39,428 nucleotides of DNA, from IMG/VR virus record IMGVR_UViG_3300037541_000699, positions 1-39,428 of that record, one strand, 5' to 3'. Every line of letters begins with the position of its first letter. Within the stretch, counting starts at the first letter, position 1. Origin of the DNA: a virus. The translations under genes and the position numbers were made by a program. This document shows positions 3,290-39,428 of the stretch, piece by piece. The notes below the pieces were generated by a model that saw only the letters and a list, made by a program, of their open reading frames with translations, did no database searches and was not told where the DNA came from.

Positions 3290-3946
3290 TCATAGGGCAA
3301 GCTCGGCGAGGACGCTTTCGAGGGCGGGGTTGAATTCCTCCTCCCGCCACTGGCTAATGGCTCGCATGGCGTGCTGGGGGTTGTCGGGGTTCGCCCGCTG
3401 GGCGATGCGGCCTTCAAAGGAGGCGAAGAGCGAGACGAATTTCATGAGCGCGGCTTTGGCATCCTGCCAGGCGGACATGGGCTGAAGTCGTCCGCTTTCG
3501 AGATCGGCCTGCACCCGCCGCTGGCGGGCGAGGTGGTAGGACTTGAGGGAATCGGCGGCGATTTTCACGAAGCCGATGGCCGCCATGGGGTCTTGACGCT
3601 CTAAAGCGGCTTGCCGCTGGGCATTGGCAGCCACTAAACCGGCCCAGGCCTGGCATTCGGCATATTCTTCCGGCGTCCACTGGTCCTGTGGTTTCTCCAT
3701 CGCGGGCGGGGCCACATGCACCAGCCGATCTCCGGGGGGCGTCTGCCCGCCCATCACGGCGACCAGGGCGCGTTTTTGCTCTTCGCTCGGGTCGGAGACT
3801 TCGAGCGCCTTCGCTCCCTGCGTCGCCAAAAAAGCCACGTAATCGCCGTGCCGATTTTTGGCATGGAGTTGCGCCGTGCGAAGGGCCACCCCCTTCGCAG
3901 CCATGTAGAGCTTCACCAGCCCCGATTCTGCATGCGACCGCGCCAT
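3290..3946 (-). CDS. Probable small terminase subunit
   Basis: A 218-residue protein at the head of the methyltransferase-terminase operon, where small terminase (DNA recognition) subunits normally sit. Residues 8-40 look like a helix-turn-helix segment (GLVKLYMAAKGVALRTAQLH), followed by an Ala/Gln/Arg-rich helical body. Upstream, 3960-3966 carries the late-gene motif TGTCAAA on the plus strand, about 14 bases before the start. The role rests on position, size and the HTH-like start, not on a recognised conserved motif; another DNA-binding late protein remains possible. Confidence 0.6.
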   Translation of the reverse strand: MARSHAESGLVKLYMAAKGVALRTAQLHAKNRHGDYVAFLATQGAKALEVSDPSEEQKRALVAVMGGQTPPGDRLVHVAPPAMEKPQDQWTPEEYAECQAWAGLVAANAQRQAALERQDPMAAIGFVKIAADSLKSYHLARQRRVQADLESGRLQPMSAWQDAKAALMKFVSLFASFEGRIAQRANPDNPQHAMRAISQWREEEFNPALESVLAELAL

Positions 3947-4556
3947 GATGCGCTTCCGGTGTCAAAGCGCACCGAAACCGCGAAAAACGCAACGCATGCG
4001 CCCAAACCATGCGCAAACACGTTTGCGCGTCCGCTCGCACAAAGGGCGTGAGACATTAAACCCGACTGGATAGGGGTGGCTGGAAAAAGATTCCTTACCG
4101 CCCCCCCACCCTATGAGGGTCGCGACGCTCAAACCCACACCCGCAGCCACCTACTCCAGAAGTCGCCTCAGTCACACAATCCTTCAAAACCCTCATAGAC
4201 CCTCAAAACCCTCTTACTTCCTTGGAAAATCAAGGGTTCCAGCGCGAGAGGGTGGCCATTCAAAAGCTGCATTCGAGAGGGTAGCCTCTTGAAATGGCAC
4301 CCACTTCCTCCGCAATCGTTCAAAACAGCGTGAAAAGCCGAGAGGGTCGAGAGGGTCGCCGTTTGATTGGTGGGAATAAAAAGAGGGTCGGGCGGCGGCG
4401 GCGAGCCGTCTGCATTCCGCCTCCGGCGATGCTGCCGCACACGCGGAACGATAGCTATGGTGCGACGTTCGCGGCGTTGCGTTCTTGCCTCACCTCTCAC
4501 CCCTCGCTCACCCCGCACCCCGCGAGCGCATCATGGCGCTCGCGCTCACTCACCTC
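3947..4556. repeat. 610-base non-coding region with GAGGGT repeats
   Basis: No convincing gene lies between the helicase-like gene and the small terminase. Open frames here are composed of low-complexity Arg/Pro-rich translation. The region holds repeated GAGAGGGTNGCC-type sites at 4246-4257, 4275-4286, 4340-4349 and 4349-4360, with a further AGAGGGTCGGG at 4382-4392. A direct repeat TCAAAACCCTC occurs at 4184-4194 and 4203-4213 (start to start 19 bases), and CACCTCTCACCCCTC recurs near 4490-4565. Its place just upstream of the terminase genes suggests a packaging (pac/cos) recognition site, a replication origin or a late control region. Confidence 0.5.
3958..3967 (-). promoter_or_regulatory. 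TGTCAA late motif (representative of a dispersed set)
   Basis: Plus-strand TGTCAA occurs at 3960, 16738, 20538, 25157, 29917, 31132, 32960, 34284, 34737, 35366 and 37477, with a TGTCAG variant at 37116. All lie within about 10-60 bases upstream of minus-strand late-gene starts and all in one orientation (TTTGACA on the coding strand). No -10 box follows, so these are not ordinary sigma-70 promoters. Confidence 0.7.
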
Positions 4557-7568: not shown

Positions 7569-8951
7569 TCAAATCGGCCCCACCCCGATCGCCTTCGCCA
7601 CCTCGCTGATCACCTTCATCGGCTCGTCGCTCGAGTCGCTCTCCGCGCACAGCAGCAGCATCAGGGCGCAGCGCATCGGGGCGCGTTGCTTCTTGTCGCC
7701 GCGCATCCACTCCATCGCCGCCTCGCGGTCGGTGATACCACGCCAGGCCTCCAGTGCTCCGGCATCCACATCCGTTGTGAGATGCGCCAGGAAATCCCGC
7801 AGCGGCTCCCACGGCGCACTCGTCATCACCAGCGTCGGGTATTCGAGCAGCTCGTCATAAATTGCGCCCAGGTTGGTGCGTAGCCATTGCCGCAGTTGCT
7901 CGACCTCCTCCATGGCCTCAGCCTTGATCGGCATCGTGCTCACCGGCGGCGGCAGCACCTCCGTCGTGGTCTCCTGCTCGTTATCGGCGTCATCATCGCT
8001 CACCTCGGTCGGCGGCTTCACACTCAGCGCATCGCGCATCATGCTCGAGTTCACCAGCCGCACATGCCCCTCCGCATGCAGCGGAGCCGCCACCACATAC
8101 ACCGGCACACCGATCTCCAGTGCCACCTGTTCCCAGGTGCGGCCTTCGCGATCCTTCGGCATCATCACATCGCCAAATTCAAACTCCGGCTGCGGTTGCC
8201 CACTCTCACCCATCGCAAATTCACGCCGCTCGGCCCACTCCACGAAGTGATAGCCCTTCGCCACCTTGTATTTCTTGCGCAGCGCGACCTCACGCGCCAG
8301 CCACTCCTTGCGACGCTTCTCCGGCAGCACATAATGCGCCTGAATGTAGGCCTTCGCCTGCCCATGCGCCATCGGCTCCCCGGTCTCCAGATCCTTGAGG
8401 ATCATCTGCGTCGCTGCACGTCGCTCCTTCGCATCCAGCACCTCCAGCAGCAGCTCTGCCGTGTTCATGCTGAGTCTTCCATCACTCAGTGCCGCTCTCG
8501 CCGCCTGCGGCAGTTGCTCGCCCAGCTCGAACCATAGCTGCGCACGCTCAGCCGACACCCCCAGACTCGGAGCCAGTTCATCGGTTCGCATGCCCAGTTT
8601 CACACCGTTCTCCACCGCCACGATCTTCTCCTCCGCATCCAGCGGATCGTTGTGCCCGTGATCCTCCAGGAGGAAACGATACGCCGCCGCCTCGTCATCG
8701 TAGTGGTGCACCACCTGCGCACACTCCGTCCAGCCCAGTGTGCTCATCGCCTCAAAGCGGCGGTGCCCTTTGAGCAGATAGTCACCATCCACCCGCTCCC
8801 ACACATGGATCGCGTCTTGCAGACCCTCACGGGCCAGCGAAGACACCAGCTCCGGCATGCCACGATAGTTCGAGCCACGCGGATTCCATTCCCAGAATTT
8901 CACACGCTCCAAGGAGCGCACCACCACTTCATTTTTTGTTTGTTCGTTCAT
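7569..8951 (-). CDS. ParB/RepB-family protein
   Basis: A 460-residue protein with an N-terminal ParB nuclease-like domain: NPRG at 23-26 and KGHRR at 61-65, then a helical DNA-binding part (about 95-215). A long acidic linker follows (about 320-350, rich in Asp/Glu/Thr). In phages such proteins take part in partition, regulation or DNA processing. No ParA-type ATPase is present in the window, so classical segregation is not supported here. It lies in the early operon just before the primase-like gene. This is the second ParB-like domain of the phage, the other being fused to the methyltransferase. Confidence 0.78.
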   Translation of the reverse strand: MNEQTKNEVVVRSLERVKFWEWNPRGSNYRGMPELVSSLAREGLQDAIHVWERVDGDYLLKGHRRFEAMSTLGWTECAQVVHHYDDEAAAYRFLLEDHGHNDPLDAEEKIVAVENGVKLGMRTDELAPSLGVSAERAQLWFELGEQLPQAARAALSDGRLSMNTAELLLEVLDAKERRAATQMILKDLETGEPMAHGQAKAYIQAHYVLPEKRRKEWLAREVALRKKYKVAKGYHFVEWAERREFAMGESGQPQPEFEFGDVMMPKDREGRTWEQVALEIGVPVYVVAAPLHAEGHVRLVNSSMMRDALSVKPPTEVSDDDADNEQETTTEVLPPPVSTMPIKAEAMEEVEQLRQWLRTNLGAIYDELLEYPTLVMTSAPWEPLRDFLAHLTTDVDAGALEAWRGITDREAAMEWMRGDKKQRAPMRCALMLLLCAESDSSDEPMKVISEVAKAIGVGPI

Positions 8952-11226: not shown

Positions 11227-12011
11227 GGCCTCACCTCCTCATTTTTCATCATTGCACCTTCATCCTCTATCCTTTCAATCAGCCCACCCAGGCACCCGAT
11301 GACCAGGTGCAGACTCGCCTCCGCAGCCGCCAGCTTCGCACCGTAGTCCTCCACACTCAGATCACCCTGCGCCTTGCGCACATCGTCCCGCGCCGAGCAT
11401 GTCTCCACCACCAGCGCCTCCACAATGCGCCGCAGCTCCACACCTCTCACCTCTGACCTCTCACTTCTCACCGTCAGCATGTCCACCTCAGAAAGCGGAG
11501 CGCGGATGCCCTCATCCGCCGCCAAAGGCTCACTCAAACTCTCCAGCGGCCCCACACGCCAGCTCAGATTCTCGCCTCTCACCTCTGCCCTCTCACCTCT
11601 CACCGCCGTCTCTTCATCCTCCCAGCCCTTCTCCTCCCCGGTTTTTTCATCCCAGAACCGCGTTGTCTTTTCAAGCCGCTGCCGCCGCTCCAGCTCCCGC
11701 TGCCTTAAGTCCTCGAACCAGCGCTCATTATCCTCCACTTTTCGCACCGCCAGCAGGATCAGCACCACTGAAAAAAACAGCATCAGGCCCATGATCGACC
11801 CCTCCGCCCAAGGAGCCAGCGCGACTAGATGCTCGTTGCCAGATCCTAGATTCCAGCATCCAGCATCCAGCCTCCAGCATCCAGCCACACAGCTCCACAG
11901 CCACGCCACCAGCGCAGCCATCGTCAGCAAGGTCAATCCGGTCAACACCGTCCCCCGCCAGTCTCTACGCACGCGTCTTTTCGGTCCCGCATACTGCATT
12001 TCGTATTTCAT
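11223..12011 (-). CDS. Two-TM membrane protein carrying repeat-derived segments
   Basis: A 262-residue inner-membrane protein of unknown function. It has TM segments at about 21-43 and 72-92, then a charged cytoplasmic tail. Three ATGs follow an excellent GGAGG (12020-12024); the second and third (12014, 12011) have proper spacing, and 12011 is reported. Part of the coding sequence is made of the same short repeats seen between genes. CWRLDAGCWNL, between the TM segments, comes from GGATGCT-type heptamers at 11841-11886. VRGERAEVRGE and VRSERSEVRGVE come from AGAGGTG-type repeats. The protein may therefore be repeat-expanded relative to relatives. Confidence 0.6.
   Translation of the reverse strand: MKYEMQYAGPKRRVRRDWRGTVLTGLTLLTMAALVAWLWSCVAGCWRLDAGCWNLGSGNEHLVALAPWAEGSIMGLMLFFSVVLILLAVRKVEDNERWFEDLRQRELERRQRLEKTTRFWDEKTGEEKGWEDEETAVRGERAEVRGENLSWRVGPLESLSEPLAADEGIRAPLSEVDMLTVRSERSEVRGVELRRIVEALVVETCSARDDVRKAQGDLSVEDYGAKLAAAEASLHLVIGCLGGLIERIEDEGAMMKNEEVRP
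11841..11886. repeat. Heptanucleotide repeat inside a coding region
   Basis: Reverse-orientation copies of the CTGGATG heptamer family (seen here as CCAGCAT units) followed by a CTAGAT-type unit. It is the same composite arrangement found at 22107-22257 and 29924-30010, but within the reading frame of the membrane protein. Confidence 0.75.
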
Positions 12012-12981: not shown

Positions 12982-13176
12982 TCAGGCGGCAAGGTCAGGG
13001 GCGAGCTGCTGTCTGAGCACCGCAAGACCGCGCTCCAGCGCCAGGCGCATCGTGTCTTGCTTGCTCAACTTCACCGCCACGGCGGTTTCATTCACCAGCA
13101 CTGCTAGGTCGGCCGTCAGGCGTAGCGGCACTGGCACCGCTGTTGATCTTCTCTCGTCGCTGTCTGCTTTGCTCAT
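12982..13176 (-). CDS. Ribbon-helix-helix regulator (Cro-like position)
   Basis: A 64-residue DNA-binding protein. The RHH fold is visible as a strand VPVPLRLT followed by two helices, the second LSKQDTMRLALERGLAVL. It is the first gene of the minus-strand early operon and diverges from a second RHH gene across an 87-base AT-rich region with repeated operator-like sites. The second helix resembles that of the divergent gene (MSKADIMRLCMRIGL), so the two look related, like a repressor/Cro pair. Confidence 0.75.
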   Translation of the reverse strand: MSKADSDERRSTAVPVPLRLTADLAVLVNETAVAVKLSKQDTMRLALERGLAVLRQQLAPDLAA

Positions 13177-13184
13177 GGCGGACG

Positions 13185-13234
13185 AATATACGTTTCATAT
13201 ATAATCGTCAACGCAAAATATACATTTCTTGTAT
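13185..13234. promoter_or_regulatory. Divergent promoter/operator region with direct repeats
   Basis: AT-rich region between the two RHH genes. Two 18-base direct repeats AATATAC[G/A]TTTC[A/T]T[A/G]TAT lie at 13185-13202 and 13217-13234, 32 bases apart (about three helical turns). A perfect TATAAT (13200-13205) faces the plus-strand gene. A TTGACG (minus, 13206-13211) with an AT-rich -10-like stretch over the first repeat faces the early operon. The repeats overlap both promoters and are the likely binding sites of one or both RHH proteins. Confidence 0.65.
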
Positions 13235-13263
13235 CGCCCTTCGTTTCTGTGCTATTTTTCCAA

Positions 13264-13734
13264 GTGAAAACGAAACCCATCCCCATCGCGTTACCCCACG
13301 ACTTGCTTGATCAAGTTGATCAAGTCCAACACCTCACCGGCATGAGCAAAGCCGACATCATGCGACTCTGCATGCGCATCGGTCTTGTCGATCTCCGCGC
13401 CGCCGAGCATGATCTGCCAGGCATCGTCAAACGCATCGCTGACGACGCAGGCTTATCGTTCCAACAATGGTCGAAAGAAAAGTCCGAACAAAATGAAGCT
13501 CGACAAAAAAACGCCGATCTGTTGGAATCCCAGGAATGTGCTCCACCTGCGCCTTCGCGAAAGCGTTCCCCCAGCACCGGACCGGTGCCAACGACTGCGA
13601 ACATTGTGCGGCTGCCGCCGCCGCCCGTCATAGCCACACTGCTGCACGACATGGTAGCCGAGACCTCCAACCCCACACCTGTCACCGAGCCCCGCAGCGA
13701 AGCACGCTACGAAAAAAAACGCCGTAAAGCATGA
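13264..13734 (+). CDS. Ribbon-helix-helix regulator with extended C-terminus (repressor candidate)
   Basis: First gene of the only convincing plus-strand operon. The N-terminal 45 residues form an RHH domain (KPIPIALP strand, then helices including MSKADIMRLCMRIGLVDLR). A 110-residue Pro/Ser/Lys-rich tail of low complexity follows. GTG 13264 is preferred because the RHH strand begins immediately after it; GTG 13249 would add five residues, and neither has a Shine-Dalgarno site. Transcribed away from the early operon and next to the integrase, it occupies the place of a prophage repressor. Ends in an ATGA overlap with the next gene. Confidence 0.72.
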   Translation: MKTKPIPIALPHDLLDQVDQVQHLTGMSKADIMRLCMRIGLVDLRAAEHDLPGIVKRIADDAGLSFQQWSKEKSEQNEARQKNADLLESQECAPPAPSRKRSPSTGPVPTTANIVRLPPPPVIATLLHDMVAETSNPTPVTEPRSEARYEKKRRKA

Positions 13735-13904
13735 AGCCGCTCCTCGTCAGCTTGATTTTTTCAGTGGGCACAATTGGGCTACTCAAAAAGCCCGTTGGGC
13801 CTTGTCAGCCCTACGCTGAAAAATGCCTGCACTGCACCGACTGTTCGCAGTGCAAACACTGCGCAGTGGACAAAGGCCGCTGCTCCGTTTGCTTCCACCA
13901 ATGA
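13731..13904 (+). CDS. 57-residue cysteine-rich protein with hydrophobic N-terminus
   Basis: Not recognised. The start overlaps the repressor stop (ATGA) and the stop overlaps the next start (ATGA), so it is the middle gene of a coupled operon. Residues 4-18 are hydrophobic (signal or anchor). The rest contains eight cysteines at 25, 32, 35, 38, 41, 44, 51 and 54: five in a strict C-x2 ladder, then a CxxC. This pattern suggests metal (zinc) binding or a disulfide-rich exported peptide. It is likely expressed from the prophage. Confidence 0.65.
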   Translation: MKPLLVSLIFSVGTIGLLKKPVGPCQPYAEKCLHCTDCSQCKHCAVDKGRCSVCFHQ

Positions 13905-14260
13905 ACACCTCAACTGAACGCCCCACCGCCCTGATCAAACGCCGCGTTAAAAACGGCACCGCGCAGACCGTCGCTTTCTGTTTCTTCTTTGGTGGCATCT
14001 TTCTTCTGTTTCTTTCTCCGCCCCTCGGCCTGCTCGCCATGCTGCTGGGTCTCGTGGTCGATACCATTCGCACCGTCGAGCACACCTGCGGAGCCTGTGG
14101 CAATCACGTCGCCAGCACCAGCACCCTCTGCCCCACCTGCCACATCACGCTCGAGCCACCGCCCAGCCCATGGCCCGACAGGCTGCTCAGCCTCGGCCTA
14201 ATCACCCTCGTGGTCATCGGTGGCATCTTGTTGCGACGCTGGATGCTAGGCACACTTTGA
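13901..14260 (+). CDS. Zinc-ribbon membrane protein
   Basis: A 119-residue protein with a hydrophobic hairpin at about 22-52 (VAFCFFFGGIFLLFLSPPLG and on), a zinc-ribbon-like CGACGNH then CPTC at about 63-80, and a third TM at about 94-113. ATG 13901 overlaps the previous stop. A cytoplasmic zinc ribbon between membrane segments is common in small bacterial membrane proteins of unknown role. In this location it is a good candidate for lysogenic conversion or superinfection exclusion, which is an inference from context only. Confidence 0.65.
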   Translation: MNTSTERPTALIKRRVKNGTAQTVAFCFFFGGIFLLFLSPPLGLLAMLLGLVVDTIRTVEHTCGACGNHVASTSTLCPTCHITLEPPPSPWPDRLLSLGLITLVVIGGILLRRWMLGTL

Positions 14261-14286
14261 GCGCGATCTCCTTTCAATCCGCCCAC

Positions 14287-14318
14287 AAAAAAGCCGCTCC
14301 AATCGAGCGGCTTTTTTA
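14287..14318. terminator. Bidirectional rho-independent terminator
   Basis: Perfect 7-bp stem GCCGCTC/GAGCGGC (14293-14299 with 14305-14311), flanked by A-run and T-run, so it can stop transcription on both strands. It lies exactly between the convergent plus-strand operon (ends 14260) and the integrase (ends 14323). Confidence 0.9.
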
Positions 14319-14322
14319 TTGA

Positions 14323-15567
14323 TCAATTCGTCCGCGTCTCAACCCCGATGGCAAACCACGCGTCGCCATCCTCCTTTCGTAACGGCCTGCGATACCGCTT
14401 CCGGATCACCCCCTCTGAATTGCCCGCCCACTCCGCGACTTGCCCCCGCCCGTGTCCTTCAGCCAGTTGATACGAGATATAGGAGTGCCGCATGATGTCC
14501 TGCGGCCACACGCTCAGCATCTTCGCCGCCTTCAGCAGCCGCATCAAATGCGGCTGATCCGTCGTCCGCACGCAATGCCTCGCCGCCCGCTTGAACTTCT
14601 TCCCCCAGCGTGCGTCCTCATTCGCGCCCTGCAACATCGCCCGCACGTTGTCAGGAATCGGCACATAGCGCTGCTTCATCGTCTTCAGCGCCACCTGCGG
14701 CCCCAGGTCCAAATACCCGCGCTCCCAGTCCCACATGTCCCATGTGATGCGCCGCATCTCAAACGGCCTCAGCCCCATCCAGCAGCCAATCACGAAGAAG
14801 TTTAAACACTGCGGCTCCTTCGCACGAATCAGCGCCAAAATCTTCCGCGCCTGGTCAACGCTAAAAATCTCCGGCACCGGGTCCGCCTCCTTTCGTTTTT
14901 TGATCACCTCCGCCGGATGCGGCTCACCTCGCGCACGCATTCCCCATTCGCGACACCGATTCAAAAACGTCTTCCACGACGCCAAGCGATTGTTAAAAAA
15001 TCGCGCTCCGATCTCCGCACCATCCTCACGCGGCCGCCCGATCCACATCGTCAGCATCTCCACATCCAGGTCACACACCGACACCGCTCCGTAGCGCATC
15101 ACAAACGCCTCCAGCTCCTTGCGCAGCCCCGCCAGATGCTCCCACGAAGACCGCGCATGCAGCGCCAAAAAACGCGGCACCGCCACCGCCATCGTTGATC
15201 GATCCAGTGCCCCATGCCCCGCCTTTAGCCAGGCATCCACCGCCCGCGAAACATTCGCCAACCCATCGCAACGTCGCACCGCATCCCGCACCGTCTCCAC
15301 CACCGAATGCAACGACCTCGACCCCGCAATCTCCAGCAGTCCTTGCACCGCCTCCGCCTCGATCACCGACACCATACGCGACCCCGCTTTGCCGGCCAAC
15401 TCCCGCACCTTCGCCTGTGCCAATTTGAGCGCCCCCTCCCGCGTCATCGCCGTCGTCGAGCGTCCCTGCCGAGCCTCCCGCCATCGCACCACAAAACGCC
15501 CATCCCCCCGACGCGAAATCCGCGCCTCCACCCCGCCATATTTCACACTCTGAATCGTCTCTGCCAT
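14323..15567 (-). CDS. int: Tyrosine integrase
   Basis: Site-specific recombinase of 414 residues. It has an N-terminal arm-binding-type domain (1-60), a core-binding SAM-like domain (about 125-215) and a catalytic domain (230-400). Visible catalytic residues are Arg267 (GLRPFE), Lys298 (TMKQR), Arg360-His361 (DIMRHS) and Tyr392 (RKRYRR). The box II position three before Arg360 is Asp357 rather than His, and the usual GHS is AGNS (381-384); both are tolerated in some family members. It is read toward the terminator at 14287. Repeats upstream of its start and the tRNA-like core at 15694 fit an integrase/att cassette. Confidence 0.93.
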   Translation of the reverse strand: MAETIQSVKYGGVEARISRRGDGRFVVRWREARQGRSTTAMTREGALKLAQAKVRELAGKAGSRMVSVIEAEAVQGLLEIAGSRSLHSVVETVRDAVRRCDGLANVSRAVDAWLKAGHGALDRSTMAVAVPRFLALHARSSWEHLAGLRKELEAFVMRYGAVSVCDLDVEMLTMWIGRPREDGAEIGARFFNNRLASWKTFLNRCREWGMRARGEPHPAEVIKKRKEADPVPEIFSVDQARKILALIRAKEPQCLNFFVIGCWMGLRPFEMRRITWDMWDWERGYLDLGPQVALKTMKQRYVPIPDNVRAMLQGANEDARWGKKFKRAARHCVRTTDQPHLMRLLKAAKMLSVWPQDIMRHSYISYQLAEGHGRGQVAEWAGNSEGVIRKRYRRPLRKEDGDAWFAIGVETRTN

Positions 15568-21740: not shown

Positions 21741-22102
21741 GCGGGCGTTAAGGAGTCGGGCTTATCGAGCTTGAGGCCGAAGAACACGAGATCCATGATG
21801 ACGTGCTTGCCATCTGCCGCGATGGCGACGGACTTCGGCGGGCGATTGCCCGACATGTCGCCGACGCGGCTGTTGTCAGGCCATTGCTTGAGCCAGGCGG
21901 AGGTGATGGCGCTGCTGTCGGCGCAGAGGGCGCGGACGTGCTCCAGATCGACGCCGGGGACGCGCAAGCCGAGCGTGATGGTGGCTTGCTGTTGCGGGTT
22001 GACCTGATGCTTCACGATGGGGCTTTTGCCTTCTTCGATCAAGGGCGCGAGGAGGTGTGAGGCGAAGGCGCGGAGTTCGGTGTCGAGTTGTGCAGGGGTC
22101 AT
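21737..22102 (-). CDS. Minor tail protein, unknown
   Basis: Not recognised. 121 residues, soluble, no clear motif. The start codon lies 4 bases from a 15-copy heptamer array that occupies its entire leader, so no Shine-Dalgarno site is possible in the usual place. Translation may depend on coupling or unstructured leader sequence. Confidence 0.58.
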
Positions 22103-22106
22103 GGGG

Positions 22107-22257
22107 CTGGATGCTGGATGCTGGATGCTGGATGCTGGATGCTGGATGCTGGATGCTGGATGCTGGATGCTGGATGCTGGATGCTGGATGCTGGATGCTG
22201 GATGCTGGATGCTAGAATCTAGGATCTAGGATCTAGGATCGAGGATCGAGGATCGAG
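22107..22257. repeat. Heptanucleotide tandem array (15 x CTGGATG plus variants)
   Basis: Fifteen perfect CTGGATG units at 22107-22211, followed by CTAGAAT, three CTAGGAT-type and three CGAGGAT-type heptamers to 22257. The array exactly fills the gap between two tail genes. Perfect tandem copies imply recent slippage expansion. Not a CRISPR: units are 7 bases with no spacers. Confidence 0.95.
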
Positions 22258-29486: not shown

Positions 29487-29900
29487 TTAGACCATTTGCG
29501 GGCAGTGCAGGAGATTGAAGGTAAACTCGCGACCGGTGGCGGTGCGGGCTTTTTTGGCTTCAGGATCGCGGCTTTGCAGGGTGCCGACGGTGATCTCGAT
29601 GCCGAAGAGTTCGTTGTCGATGAGGTTGGCGAGACTCAGGGCGACGACTTCGGCGTCATCGAGCGCGGCGAAGCCTTGCAGCGCTCCGCTGCTGGTGGGG
29701 ATGGGCTGGCCGACGATGCTGATTTCGGCTTTGGGGTCGTAGCCCTCGCTGTAGAGCGTGGCGGGCACGCTGCCTGCGTTGGGCACGCCCATGACATCGT
29801 CATAGGTGCGCGTGGTTTTGACGGTGAAGTCGGTGAGGTAGAGGCCGGACTCGTTTTGGAGCGAGCCGGGACGGGTGCCTGCGGTGTAGAGAGGGGCCAT
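29487..29900 (-). CDS. Putative major tail tube protein
   Basis: 137 residues, beta-rich (SGLYLTDFTVKTTRTYDDVM, later EISIVGQPIP). It is a single gene flanked by a strong hairpin downstream and a repeat array upstream, an isolation typical of highly expressed virion proteins. It lies three genes or more upstream of the tail chaperones, where tail tube genes are expected. No decisive motif. Late motif TGTCAAAC at 29917-29924. Confidence 0.5.
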   Translation of the reverse strand: MAPLYTAGTRPGSLQNESGLYLTDFTVKTTRTYDDVMGVPNAGSVPATLYSEGYDPKAEISIVGQPIPTSSGALQGFAALDDAEVVALSLANLIDNELFGIEITVGTLQSRDPEAKKARTATGREFTFNLLHCPQMV

Positions 29901-29923
29901 GACGAATGAGTTGCTGTGTCAAA

Positions 29924-30010
29924 CTGGAGGCTGGATGCTGGATGCTGGATGCTGGTTGCTGGTTGCTGGTTGCTGGATCTAGCATCTAGGATCGAGCATC
30001 GAGTATCTAG
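29924..30010. repeat. Heptanucleotide array (CTGGATG family)
   Basis: Twelve consecutive heptamers: CTGGAGG, three CTGGATG, three CTGGTTG, then CTGGATC, TAGCATC, TAGGATC, GAGCATC and GAGTATC. Same family and orientation as 22107-22257, filling the gap between two minus-strand genes. Confidence 0.9.
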
Positions 30011-38175: not shown

Positions 38176-39428
38176 TCAAAGCATCCCACCAGCACGGAGG
38201 AGCTGATAGTCGATACAGGTGTATTTGGAGCAGTCGCCGAAGTGGTCGTGGGGGACGCGTTGCCATTCGCCGTCGGCGTCGCGTTTTTGGCCGGTGTGTC
38301 CGAGTTTGACTTCGGGGTCGGCATCGGTGGGGAGGTGGAAGGCTCCGTCGATGCGCTTCATCATGCGATTGGCGTAGAGCATGTTTTTGATCTCGCGGTC
38401 GTTGAAGACGAGGAGGGACATCTGCGGACGAGTGGCGACGCGGGTTTCGTGGAGTTGACCGTGTTTGGCATCGGAGCCTTTGACGGGGATGAAGAAGCCT
38501 TTGGAGGCGGCGCAGACGTCGAGTTGATCGTCCTGCTGCCATCCGGTGTCGAGGTAGCCGCGGACGGGGAAGATTTTCTCGCCGGTGCCTTCGACGATGA
38601 TGTGGCGGGCTTTCAGGAAGTCGGTGGCGAGGAGGTCTTTGGAGGAGACGACGGTGCCCCAATCGCAGACCCAGACGCCGCCGTCGTGGGCGAGGGCGGT
38701 GAGTTCCCAATGGGTGGTGGCTTCGCCGGGGTCGGCATTGAGTAGGAGCCGGAGGGGCTTGAATGGTAAGGTGCCGCGTCGATACAAGGGGCGGCCGTTT
38801 TTGCCTTCGGCGATGGCTTTGACCACGTCGTCCATTCTGAGGTTGACGTTGAACTCGGTCCACGGGCGAGCCAGGCGGCTGTTGTGATAGTCCTGCAAGC
38901 CGAACATGTCCTTGAGTGAATCGAGGAAGTCCCAGGCCATCGTGCCGAAGCTCTTGGTGGGGGAGTAAAACGAGGGCAGGATGAAGGTGCGGCGGTTTTT
39001 GGCGGCGAGTAAGTTGTGGCGCTTTTCAAGACAGCCTTCGACCATGGCTTGCTTGTGGAGTTCGGTGATCTCGCAGCCGTTGTGCGGGCAGATGTAGCGC
39101 ACGGATTCGCGGACGCGGGTCTCGTCCCATTGTCCGGAGGCTTCACGGGCGTCTTTGTCCCAGGTGAGCGATTTGTAATCGCTGGGCAGTGTGAGTCTGA
39201 GGTGGGTGTTGTAGTCTTCGACATCTTCGGGCCGTCCGATGAAGTCGAGGTAGAACCAGCCGTGGCAGTGCGGGCACTCGGTGTAGAAATGGGTCTGGTC
39301 TCCGGCGAGGATGTATTTCCAGAAGGGGTGCGTGGGGCTGTTTGGCGTGCTGCTGTAATAGTGGAACTCGAGAGCACCGAAGCCGTCGGTGCGTTTCGCG
39401 ATGAGATGGAATGGGTGGGCCTCGGGGG
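38176..39428 (-). CDS. terL: Phage terminase large subunit, GpA family (copy A, 5' end beyond window)
   Basis: The C-terminal 416 residues or so of a GpA-type large terminase; the 5' end lies beyond the right edge. Over the C-terminal 308 residues I count ten substitutions against copy B (for example CLEKRHNL for CTEKRHNT, EFNV for EYNV, PVRG for PGRG), about 97 percent identity, with many silent changes too. It retains the zinc CPHNGC and NADPG nuclease-type motifs. It heads the structural genes of this window; copy B belongs to the far end. Confidence 0.92.
   Translation of the reverse strand, partial: PEAHPFHLIAKRTDGFGALEFHYYSSTPNSPTHPFWKYILAGDQTHFYTECPHCHGWFYLDFIGRPEDVEDYNTHLRLTLPSDYKSLTWDKDAREASGQWDETRVRESVRYICPHNGCEITELHKQAMVEGCLEKRHNLLAAKNRRTFILPSFYSPTKSFGTMAWDFLDSLKDMFGLQDYHNSRLARPWTEFNVNLRMDDVVKAIAEGKNGRPLYRRGTLPFKPLRLLLNADPGEATTHWELTALAHDGGVWVCDWGTVVSSKDLLATDFLKARHIIVEGTGEKIFPVRGYLDTGWQQDDQLDVCAASKGFFIPVKGSDAKHGQLHETRVATRPQMSLLVFNDREIKNMLYANRMMKRIDGAFHLPTDADPEVKLGHTGQKRDADGEWQRVPHDHFGDCSKYTCIDYQLLRAGGML

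What the first reader, a model, noticed from the sequence alone, without database searches (positions are those of the whole stretch)
13177..14286. Plus-strand lysogeny module: RHH regulator, eight-cysteine peptide and zinc-ribbon membrane protein
Three genes with successive ATGA overlaps (13264-13734, 13731-13904, 13901-14260) run against the rest of the phage and end in a bidirectional terminator next to the integrase. The middle gene, 57 residues, has cysteines at a strict C-x2 spacing five times in a row after a hydrophobic start. The third has a zinc ribbon between membrane segments. Position and orientation suit prophage-expressed functions such as immunity, superinfection exclusion or host conversion. 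I recognise neither small protein family.
Basis: partly seen in the sequence, partly recalled or inferred. Interest (0 to 1): 0.68.

Follow-up and report, generated by a model that had tools for sequence, protein, structure and literature searches.

The report
Prophage immunity operon with hidden gene
A virus of Verrucomicrobiaceae-type bacteria carries a small operon, most likely active while it sleeps in its host: an exchangeable DNA-binding switch, an overlooked zinc-finger-like gene in a second reading frame, an exported cysteine-rich peptide and a membrane zinc protein, probably to alter the host cell, for example against rival viruses.

Summary
The trio is real. RHH regulator P1 (13264-13734), 57-aa eight-Cys peptide P2 (13731-13904) and membrane zinc-ribbon P3 (13901-14260) overlap by ATGA, run against the phage and end at a strong terminator beside the integrase. 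P2 is an optional cassette of about 152 bp: present in the window and one relative (5 synonymous, 0 nonsynonymous changes), cleanly absent from five others. P2 belongs to an undescribed Cys-rich family with signal-peptide-like N-termini; its close members lie in lysogeny regions of unrelated Verrucomicrobiaceae prophages, two of them in the operon of a CI/S24 repressor. P3 relatives follow the lysogeny regulator in most relatives; one prophage has both families. Regulator and divergent partner swap together, as expected for immunity. Best reading: a prophage-expressed immunity operon with accessory genes for the envelope, probably superinfection exclusion or host conversion. Expression and function are untested.

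The parts
12982..13176 (-). Divergent small regulator (64 aa), RHH-like partner of P1
   Evidence: 39% identical to P1 over 41 aa; co-swaps with the + regulator
13185..13202 (.). Operator-like repeat 1, AATATACGTTTCATATAT
   Evidence: Direct repeat, 83% identical to repeat 2, spacing 32 nt; a different sequence in a similar layout in L007
13217..13234 (.). Operator-like repeat 2, AATATACATTTCTTGTAT
   Evidence: binding not tested
13264..13734 (+). P1: RHH-type regulator (about 50 N-terminal residues) with a Pro/Ser-rich tail
   Evidence: Weak PHROG repressor match, E 0.026; bacterial relative L241:8316-8573 matches Arc-like repressors, E 4.8e-6
13536..13727 (+). orfZ: nested ORF (63 aa) in the -1 frame of P1, motif C-x2-C-x-F-x3-F-P-x7-8-D-C-x-H-C
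   Evidence: Present in five lineages; codon-resampling and frame-conservation tests
13731..13904 (+). P2: 57-aa peptide, hydrophobic signal-peptide-like N-terminus, eight Cys; optional cassette (about 13736-13887 is missing in five relatives)
13901..14260 (+). P3: membrane protein with a zinc ribbon (CGAC-x10-CPTC) between hydrophobic segments
14287..14317 (.). Bidirectional terminator-like hairpin
   Evidence: z = -6.4, 0 of 200 shuffles as stable
14323..15567 (-). Tyrosine-recombinase integrase, convergent with the operon
   Evidence: phrog_1, E 1.8e-18

Best explanation
This is the rightward lysogeny (immunity) operon of a temperate phage of Verrucomicrobiaceae or close kin. Two small ribbon-helix-helix-type regulators are read divergently from a short control region with two operator-like repeats; the pair behaves as an exchangeable specificity cassette, as an immunity switch should. 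Behind the regulator come accessory genes for the lysogen: orfZ (a small zinc-finger-like protein read in the -1 frame of the regulator gene), P2 (exported, its eight Cys held by metal or disulfides) and P3 (a membrane zinc ribbon). The most likely job of P2 and P3 is to change the envelope of the lysogen, above all to hinder DNA entry by other phages (superinfection exclusion, as Ltp and SieA do). Shown: the genes, their conservation, the co-swapping of regulators, and the recurrence of P2 in lysogeny regions of unrelated prophages. Inferred: operator function, expression in lysogens, translation of orfZ, export, metal binding, exclusion.
For: Layout, overlaps and terminator. Regulator and divergent partner cluster alike in 11 of 12 phages compared and the operator-like repeats differ with regulator type. 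P3 relatives lie behind the regulator and beside an integrase in diverged phages and in a bacterial contig, L241. P2: purifying selection; close relatives in the operon of a CI/S24 repressor in two further prophages, L228 and L243, and in three other lysogeny regions, L239, L242, L244; in L239 with a P3 relative. All close P2 relatives have a hydrophobic N-terminus. Parallel: Ltp lies in the lysogeny module, is transcribed in the prophage and blocks DNA injection (PMC3952083).
Against: No expression or phenotype data. No match to any known exclusion or defence protein. P2 is missing from five of seven close relatives, so the phage does not need it. More distant P2 relatives and one P3 relative (L240) lie in what look like ordinary chromosomal settings, which fits a host physiological role as well. 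In L239 and L244 P2 is not a downstream gene of the regulator's own transcript.
Confidence: 0.42

Rival explanations
1. P2 and P3 serve lysogenic conversion for host fitness rather than phage exclusion: P2 is a phage copy of a bacterial exported metal-buffering or redox peptide, and P3 of a host membrane zinc-ribbon protein.
For: P2-family proteins occur in what look like ordinary chromosomal settings in Verrucomicrobiota and Bacteroidota; a P3 relative lies next to biotin synthase-like and other host genes in L240.
Against: The close subfamily of P2 (GPC-PYAE...) was seen only in prophage or phage settings here; no enzyme or metal-response gene is linked to it.
Confidence: 0.28
2. The small proteins act inside the lysogeny decision itself: orfZ and P1 as co-regulators, P2/P3 as a signal or sensor of the cell state that feeds the switch.
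For: All are linked to the regulator, and orfZ overlaps its gene.
Against: P2, P3 and orfZ are each missing in some phages that keep the regulator pair (L003, L011, L016, L075); P2 and P3 look like envelope proteins.
Confidence: 0.15
3. orfZ is not a gene: the -1-frame cysteines are a by-product of a conserved P1 tail.
For: The P1 frame is also open and keeps TANIV-like residues and a basic C-terminus in several lineages; no clear Shine-Dalgarno-like site precedes the orfZ ATG; the structure model is weak; some phages lack it.
Against: With the P1 protein fixed, resampled codons give the 4-Cys spacing with P 1e-4 to 5e-4 per lineage and the full motif 0 times in 200,000. orfZ identity exceeds P1-frame identity in 19 of 21 pairs; L058 and L059 differ by 4 bases in the finger, all synonymous in orfZ and all nonsynonymous in P1.
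Confidence: 0.3

Closest known systems
Ltp superinfection-exclusion lipoprotein of Streptococcus thermophilus phage TP-J34 (PMC3952083)
   Same: Small envelope protein encoded in the lysogeny module, on the strand of the lysogeny genes, expressed from the prophage
   Different: Ltp is a lipoprotein of a Gram-positive host; P2 has no lipobox and is Cys-rich; exclusion by P2/P3 is untested
SieA of phage P22 (PMC10883804)
   Same: Phage-encoded inner-membrane protein expressed from the prophage; P3 is also a predicted membrane protein
   Different: No sequence link was found; P3 carries a zinc ribbon; no exclusion data
P22 immI region, Mnt and Arc (own knowledge)
   Same: Two small ribbon-helix-helix repressors read divergently from a short operator region
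   Different: Here the second immunity-type switch seems to be the main one next to the integrase; no antirepressor was recognised; some relatives use an Xre regulator instead
zf-LITAF-like domain (PF10601)
   Same: CxxC zinc ribbon next to a membrane-inserting hydrophobic stretch; score just above the Pfam cut-off
   Different: In P3 both CxxC pairs follow the hydrophobic stretch instead of flanking it

Membership tests
Ribbon-helix-helix (Arc/CopG-like) repressors: P1 | Profile match to RHH repressors | tested here: inconclusive
   P1 itself only E 0.026 to phrog_4738, none in Pfam; related L241 regulator E 4.8e-6 to Arc-like phrog_3431
Phage immunity (repressor/operator) cassette | Regulator pair exchanged as one unit between related phages | tested here: met
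   Same clusters for both proteins, one exception (L016) among 12
Phage immunity (repressor/operator) cassette | Regulators bind the intergenic operators and confer immunity | not testable with these tools
   Only operator-like repeats are seen
Superinfection-exclusion (Sie) genes | Encoded in the lysogeny region of a temperate phage | tested here: met
Superinfection-exclusion (Sie) genes | Expressed in the lysogen and reduces infection by other phages | not testable with these tools
   No expression or plating data
zf-LITAF-like (PF10601): P3 | Two CxxC knuckles flanking a hydrophobic segment | tested here: not met
   Match covers model positions 19-68 only; no CxxC before the hydrophobic stretch
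Known defence or counter-defence proteins (PADLOC) | Profile match | tested here: not met
   No match for P1, P2, P3 or orfZ

The most novel reading that the evidence does not exclude
A zinc-finger-like gene (orfZ) is overprinted in the -1 frame inside the 3' half of a phage immunity-regulator gene and stays there while the DNA-binding part of the regulator is exchanged for other RHH or Xre types, next to a new exported Cys-rich family (P2) that keeps turning up in lysogeny regions of unrelated prophages.
Probability: 0.6. Interest if true: 0.65.

Novelty: new variant of a known kind. Interest (0 to 1): 0.52.

Why it matters
It defines an exchangeable immunity module with accessory genes in phages of Verrucomicrobiaceae, a group for which the paper searches turned up little, and two protein families (P2, orfZ) without a match in Pfam, PHROGs or NCBIfam above chance level. 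Recurrence of P2 in unrelated prophages points to a selected function in the lysogen. The nested ORF is a case where standard annotation would miss a conserved gene, and a single tagged fusion can test it.

Tried and rejected
INPHARED phages and PLSDB plasmids searched with P2 and P3: no match. The genome-contig scan with the P3 alignment found nothing. A -1 frameshift into orfZ was considered: window-type phages have A_AAA_AAC before it, but I found no usable slippery site in L016, L058, L060 or L100 by eye, whereas every lineage has an ATG 0-7 codons before the first Cys. LITAF membership rejected (see membership test). Known defence systems: no match. Structure models of orfZ and P2 are too weak to use (pLDDT 60 and 59.5; no PDB match with E <= 0.001). 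Low variability of the finger within the window group alone (3 of 21 variable sites in 69 of 231 nt) is too weak to count. An earlier count said 20 of 21 pairs for the frame comparison; the correct count is 19 of 21.

Full report
WHAT IS THERE. The window is an IMG/VR virus record of 39,428 bases. On the + strand, against the mostly leftward phage genes, lie P1 (13264-13734, GTG start), P2 (13731-13904) and P3 (13901-14260), joined by two ATGA overlaps. [quoted passage not shown] phrog_1 E = 1.8e-18). Divergent to P1 is a 64-aa protein (12982-13176, minus strand) that is 39% identical to P1 over 41 residues. Between them are two 18-nt operator-like repeats 32 nt apart (13185-13202 and 13217-13234). 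No sigma-70-type promoter match was found, which says little for this phylum.

CONSERVATION OF THE TRIO. Six relatives encode P3 at 91-96% identity. In five of them (L006, L007, L008, L009, L011) the gene before P3 ends in TAA, P3 starts 14 bases further on, and about 152 bp of P2 are missing. The sixth, L012, has P2 with five synonymous and no nonsynonymous changes. P2 is therefore a cassette. In L100 and L096 the same place holds a different ORF of about 35 residues with one hydrophobic segment (read from the sequence), and a similar ORF begins there in L060. The place between regulator and P3 thus takes up different small genes.

AN IMMUNITY REGION. The DNA-binding half of P1 is replaced in relatives while the 3' half and P3 stay. 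The + regulator and its divergent partner cluster alike: window, L059, L241 and L012 (RHH types A and B); L006, L058 and L100 (RHH type C); L060, L075, L239 and L244 (Xre regulator with an RHH-like partner). Only L016 mixes an A regulator with a B partner. Joint exchange of two divergent regulators is what an immunity cassette should show.

P2 IS A LYSOGENY-REGION FAMILY. A DNA pattern for its Cys spacing, run over the GTDB contigs, found a 65% identical protein in a Verrucomicrobiaceae MAG (L150/L228). It lies in a prophage, on the strand of a CI/S24 repressor (HTH_3 5.7e-23, Peptidase_S24 2.1e-18) and after two genes that follow that repressor, an HSDR_N-domain protein and a protein with a hydrophobic N-terminus. 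A profile search of 68 genomes of that bacterial family gave seven genomes with P2 relatives. L243 repeats the arrangement: CI/S24-like repressor, three small genes, P2, then a Mu-like protease. In L242 P2 stands between an integrase-like gene and small regulator genes and is followed by a membrane protein with a GYF_2 domain; in L244 it stands between an Xre/RHH regulator pair and an integrase-like gene. These two integrase-like genes match no Pfam or PHROG family; I name them by their similarity to each other and their C-terminal motifs only. In L239 one prophage has integrase, P2, a GYF_2 plus zinc-ribbon relative of P3, and an Xre/RHH pair. L226, L245, L172, L161 and L133 carry more distant P2 relatives in what look like ordinary chromosomal settings. 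All close relatives have a hydrophobic N-terminus of signal-peptide type and none has a lipobox by eye. Export is inferred.

P3. Relatives at 32-37% identity (L058, L059, L060) and others (L075, L096, L100, L241) lie behind the regulator and beside an integrase. L241 is a bacterial contig with RHH pair, P3 relative and integrase (Pfam 8.1e-12), which places the module in Verrucomicrobiaceae. The closest isolated phage by terminase is Akkermansia phage Moulinsart at 30.6% identity. P3 just passes the zf-LITAF-like cut-off, but both its CxxC pairs follow the hydrophobic stretch, so it is not filed there.

A NESTED ORF. In the -1 frame of the P1 tail, and in the frame of P2, lies orfZ (13536-13727), MCSTCAFAKAFPQHRTGANDCEHC and on. 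The motif C-x2-C-x-F-x3-F-P-x7-8-D-C-x-H-C occurs at the same place in window-type phages, L016, L058/L059, L060/L096 and L100, five lineages with different kinds of regulator, each with an ATG 0-7 codons before it. A fixed-spacing pattern found it in nine IMG/VR contigs; among 23 related records the pattern matched eight, once each, with no match of the reversed control pattern. With the P1 protein held fixed and codons resampled by the phage's own usage, the 4-Cys spacing arises with P = 1e-4 to 5e-4 per lineage and the full motif never in 200,000 trials. orfZ is better conserved than the P1 frame in 19 of 21 pairs, and the four base differences between L058 and L059 are all synonymous in orfZ and all change P1. 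The lineages share ancestry, so these probabilities must not be multiplied. L012 has lost half of the finger through a deletion, which also breaks its P1 tail, and L011, L075, L239, L241 and L244 lack it, so it is an accessory gene as well. Whether it is translated is untested. It has no match in Pfam, PHROGs or NCBIfam worth following.

HOW IT MOST LIKELY WORKS. The regulators hold the lytic genes off and set their own level at the repeats; the same rightward transcript would deliver orfZ, P2 and P3 in the lysogen. P2 would be exported and held together by metal or disulfides; P3 would sit in the membrane. [quoted passage not shown] I put exclusion first (whole statement 0.42), host conversion second (0.28) and a role in the lysogeny decision third (0.15). 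These are parallels in how it would work; membership in those families is not claimed.

NOVELTY. An immunity operon with accessory genes is a known kind of thing. The P2 and orfZ families, and the overprinting of orfZ in an exchangeable regulator gene, were not found in the family libraries or in the papers searched. Hence: new variant of a known kind.

Noticed in passing
window 38176-39102 versus 5-930: The right end of the contig encodes a near-identical but not identical second copy of the terminase C-terminal part found at the left end; the contig probably runs round a circular or permuted genome onto a strain variant.
   Followed up: no
L012:5136-6004: A deletion in the P1 tail shifts its frame and removes the second half of the orfZ finger, while P2 and P3 remain intact.
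   Followed up: partly
L100 about 4055-4165; L096 about 3319-3425; L060 after 1205: A different ORF of about 35 residues with one hydrophobic segment occupies the P2 place between regulator and P3.
   Followed up: partly
L240:9614-9901: A P3-like membrane zinc-ribbon protein (95 aa) next to a biotin synthase-like gene, apparently a chromosomal gene of the host group.
   Followed up: partly
L161:3683-3859; L133:1678-2064; L172:6720-7070; L245:8910-9086: Exported-looking Cys-rich proteins of the wider P2 family (CxACKNCKYCKHC-x6-CGVC) in Bacteroidota and Verrucomicrobiota, without a Pfam or NCBIfam match for those tested.
   Followed up: partly
window 22017-22229, also near 11850, 12100 and 29800-29990: Short repeats around GATGCTGGATGCTGGA/ATCCAGCATCCAGC between genes, up to about 150 bp long.
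   Followed up: no
L016:7500-8435: The one phage where an A-type regulator is paired with a B-type partner, with an extra 67-aa minus-strand ORF (7709-7912) between them.
   Followed up: no
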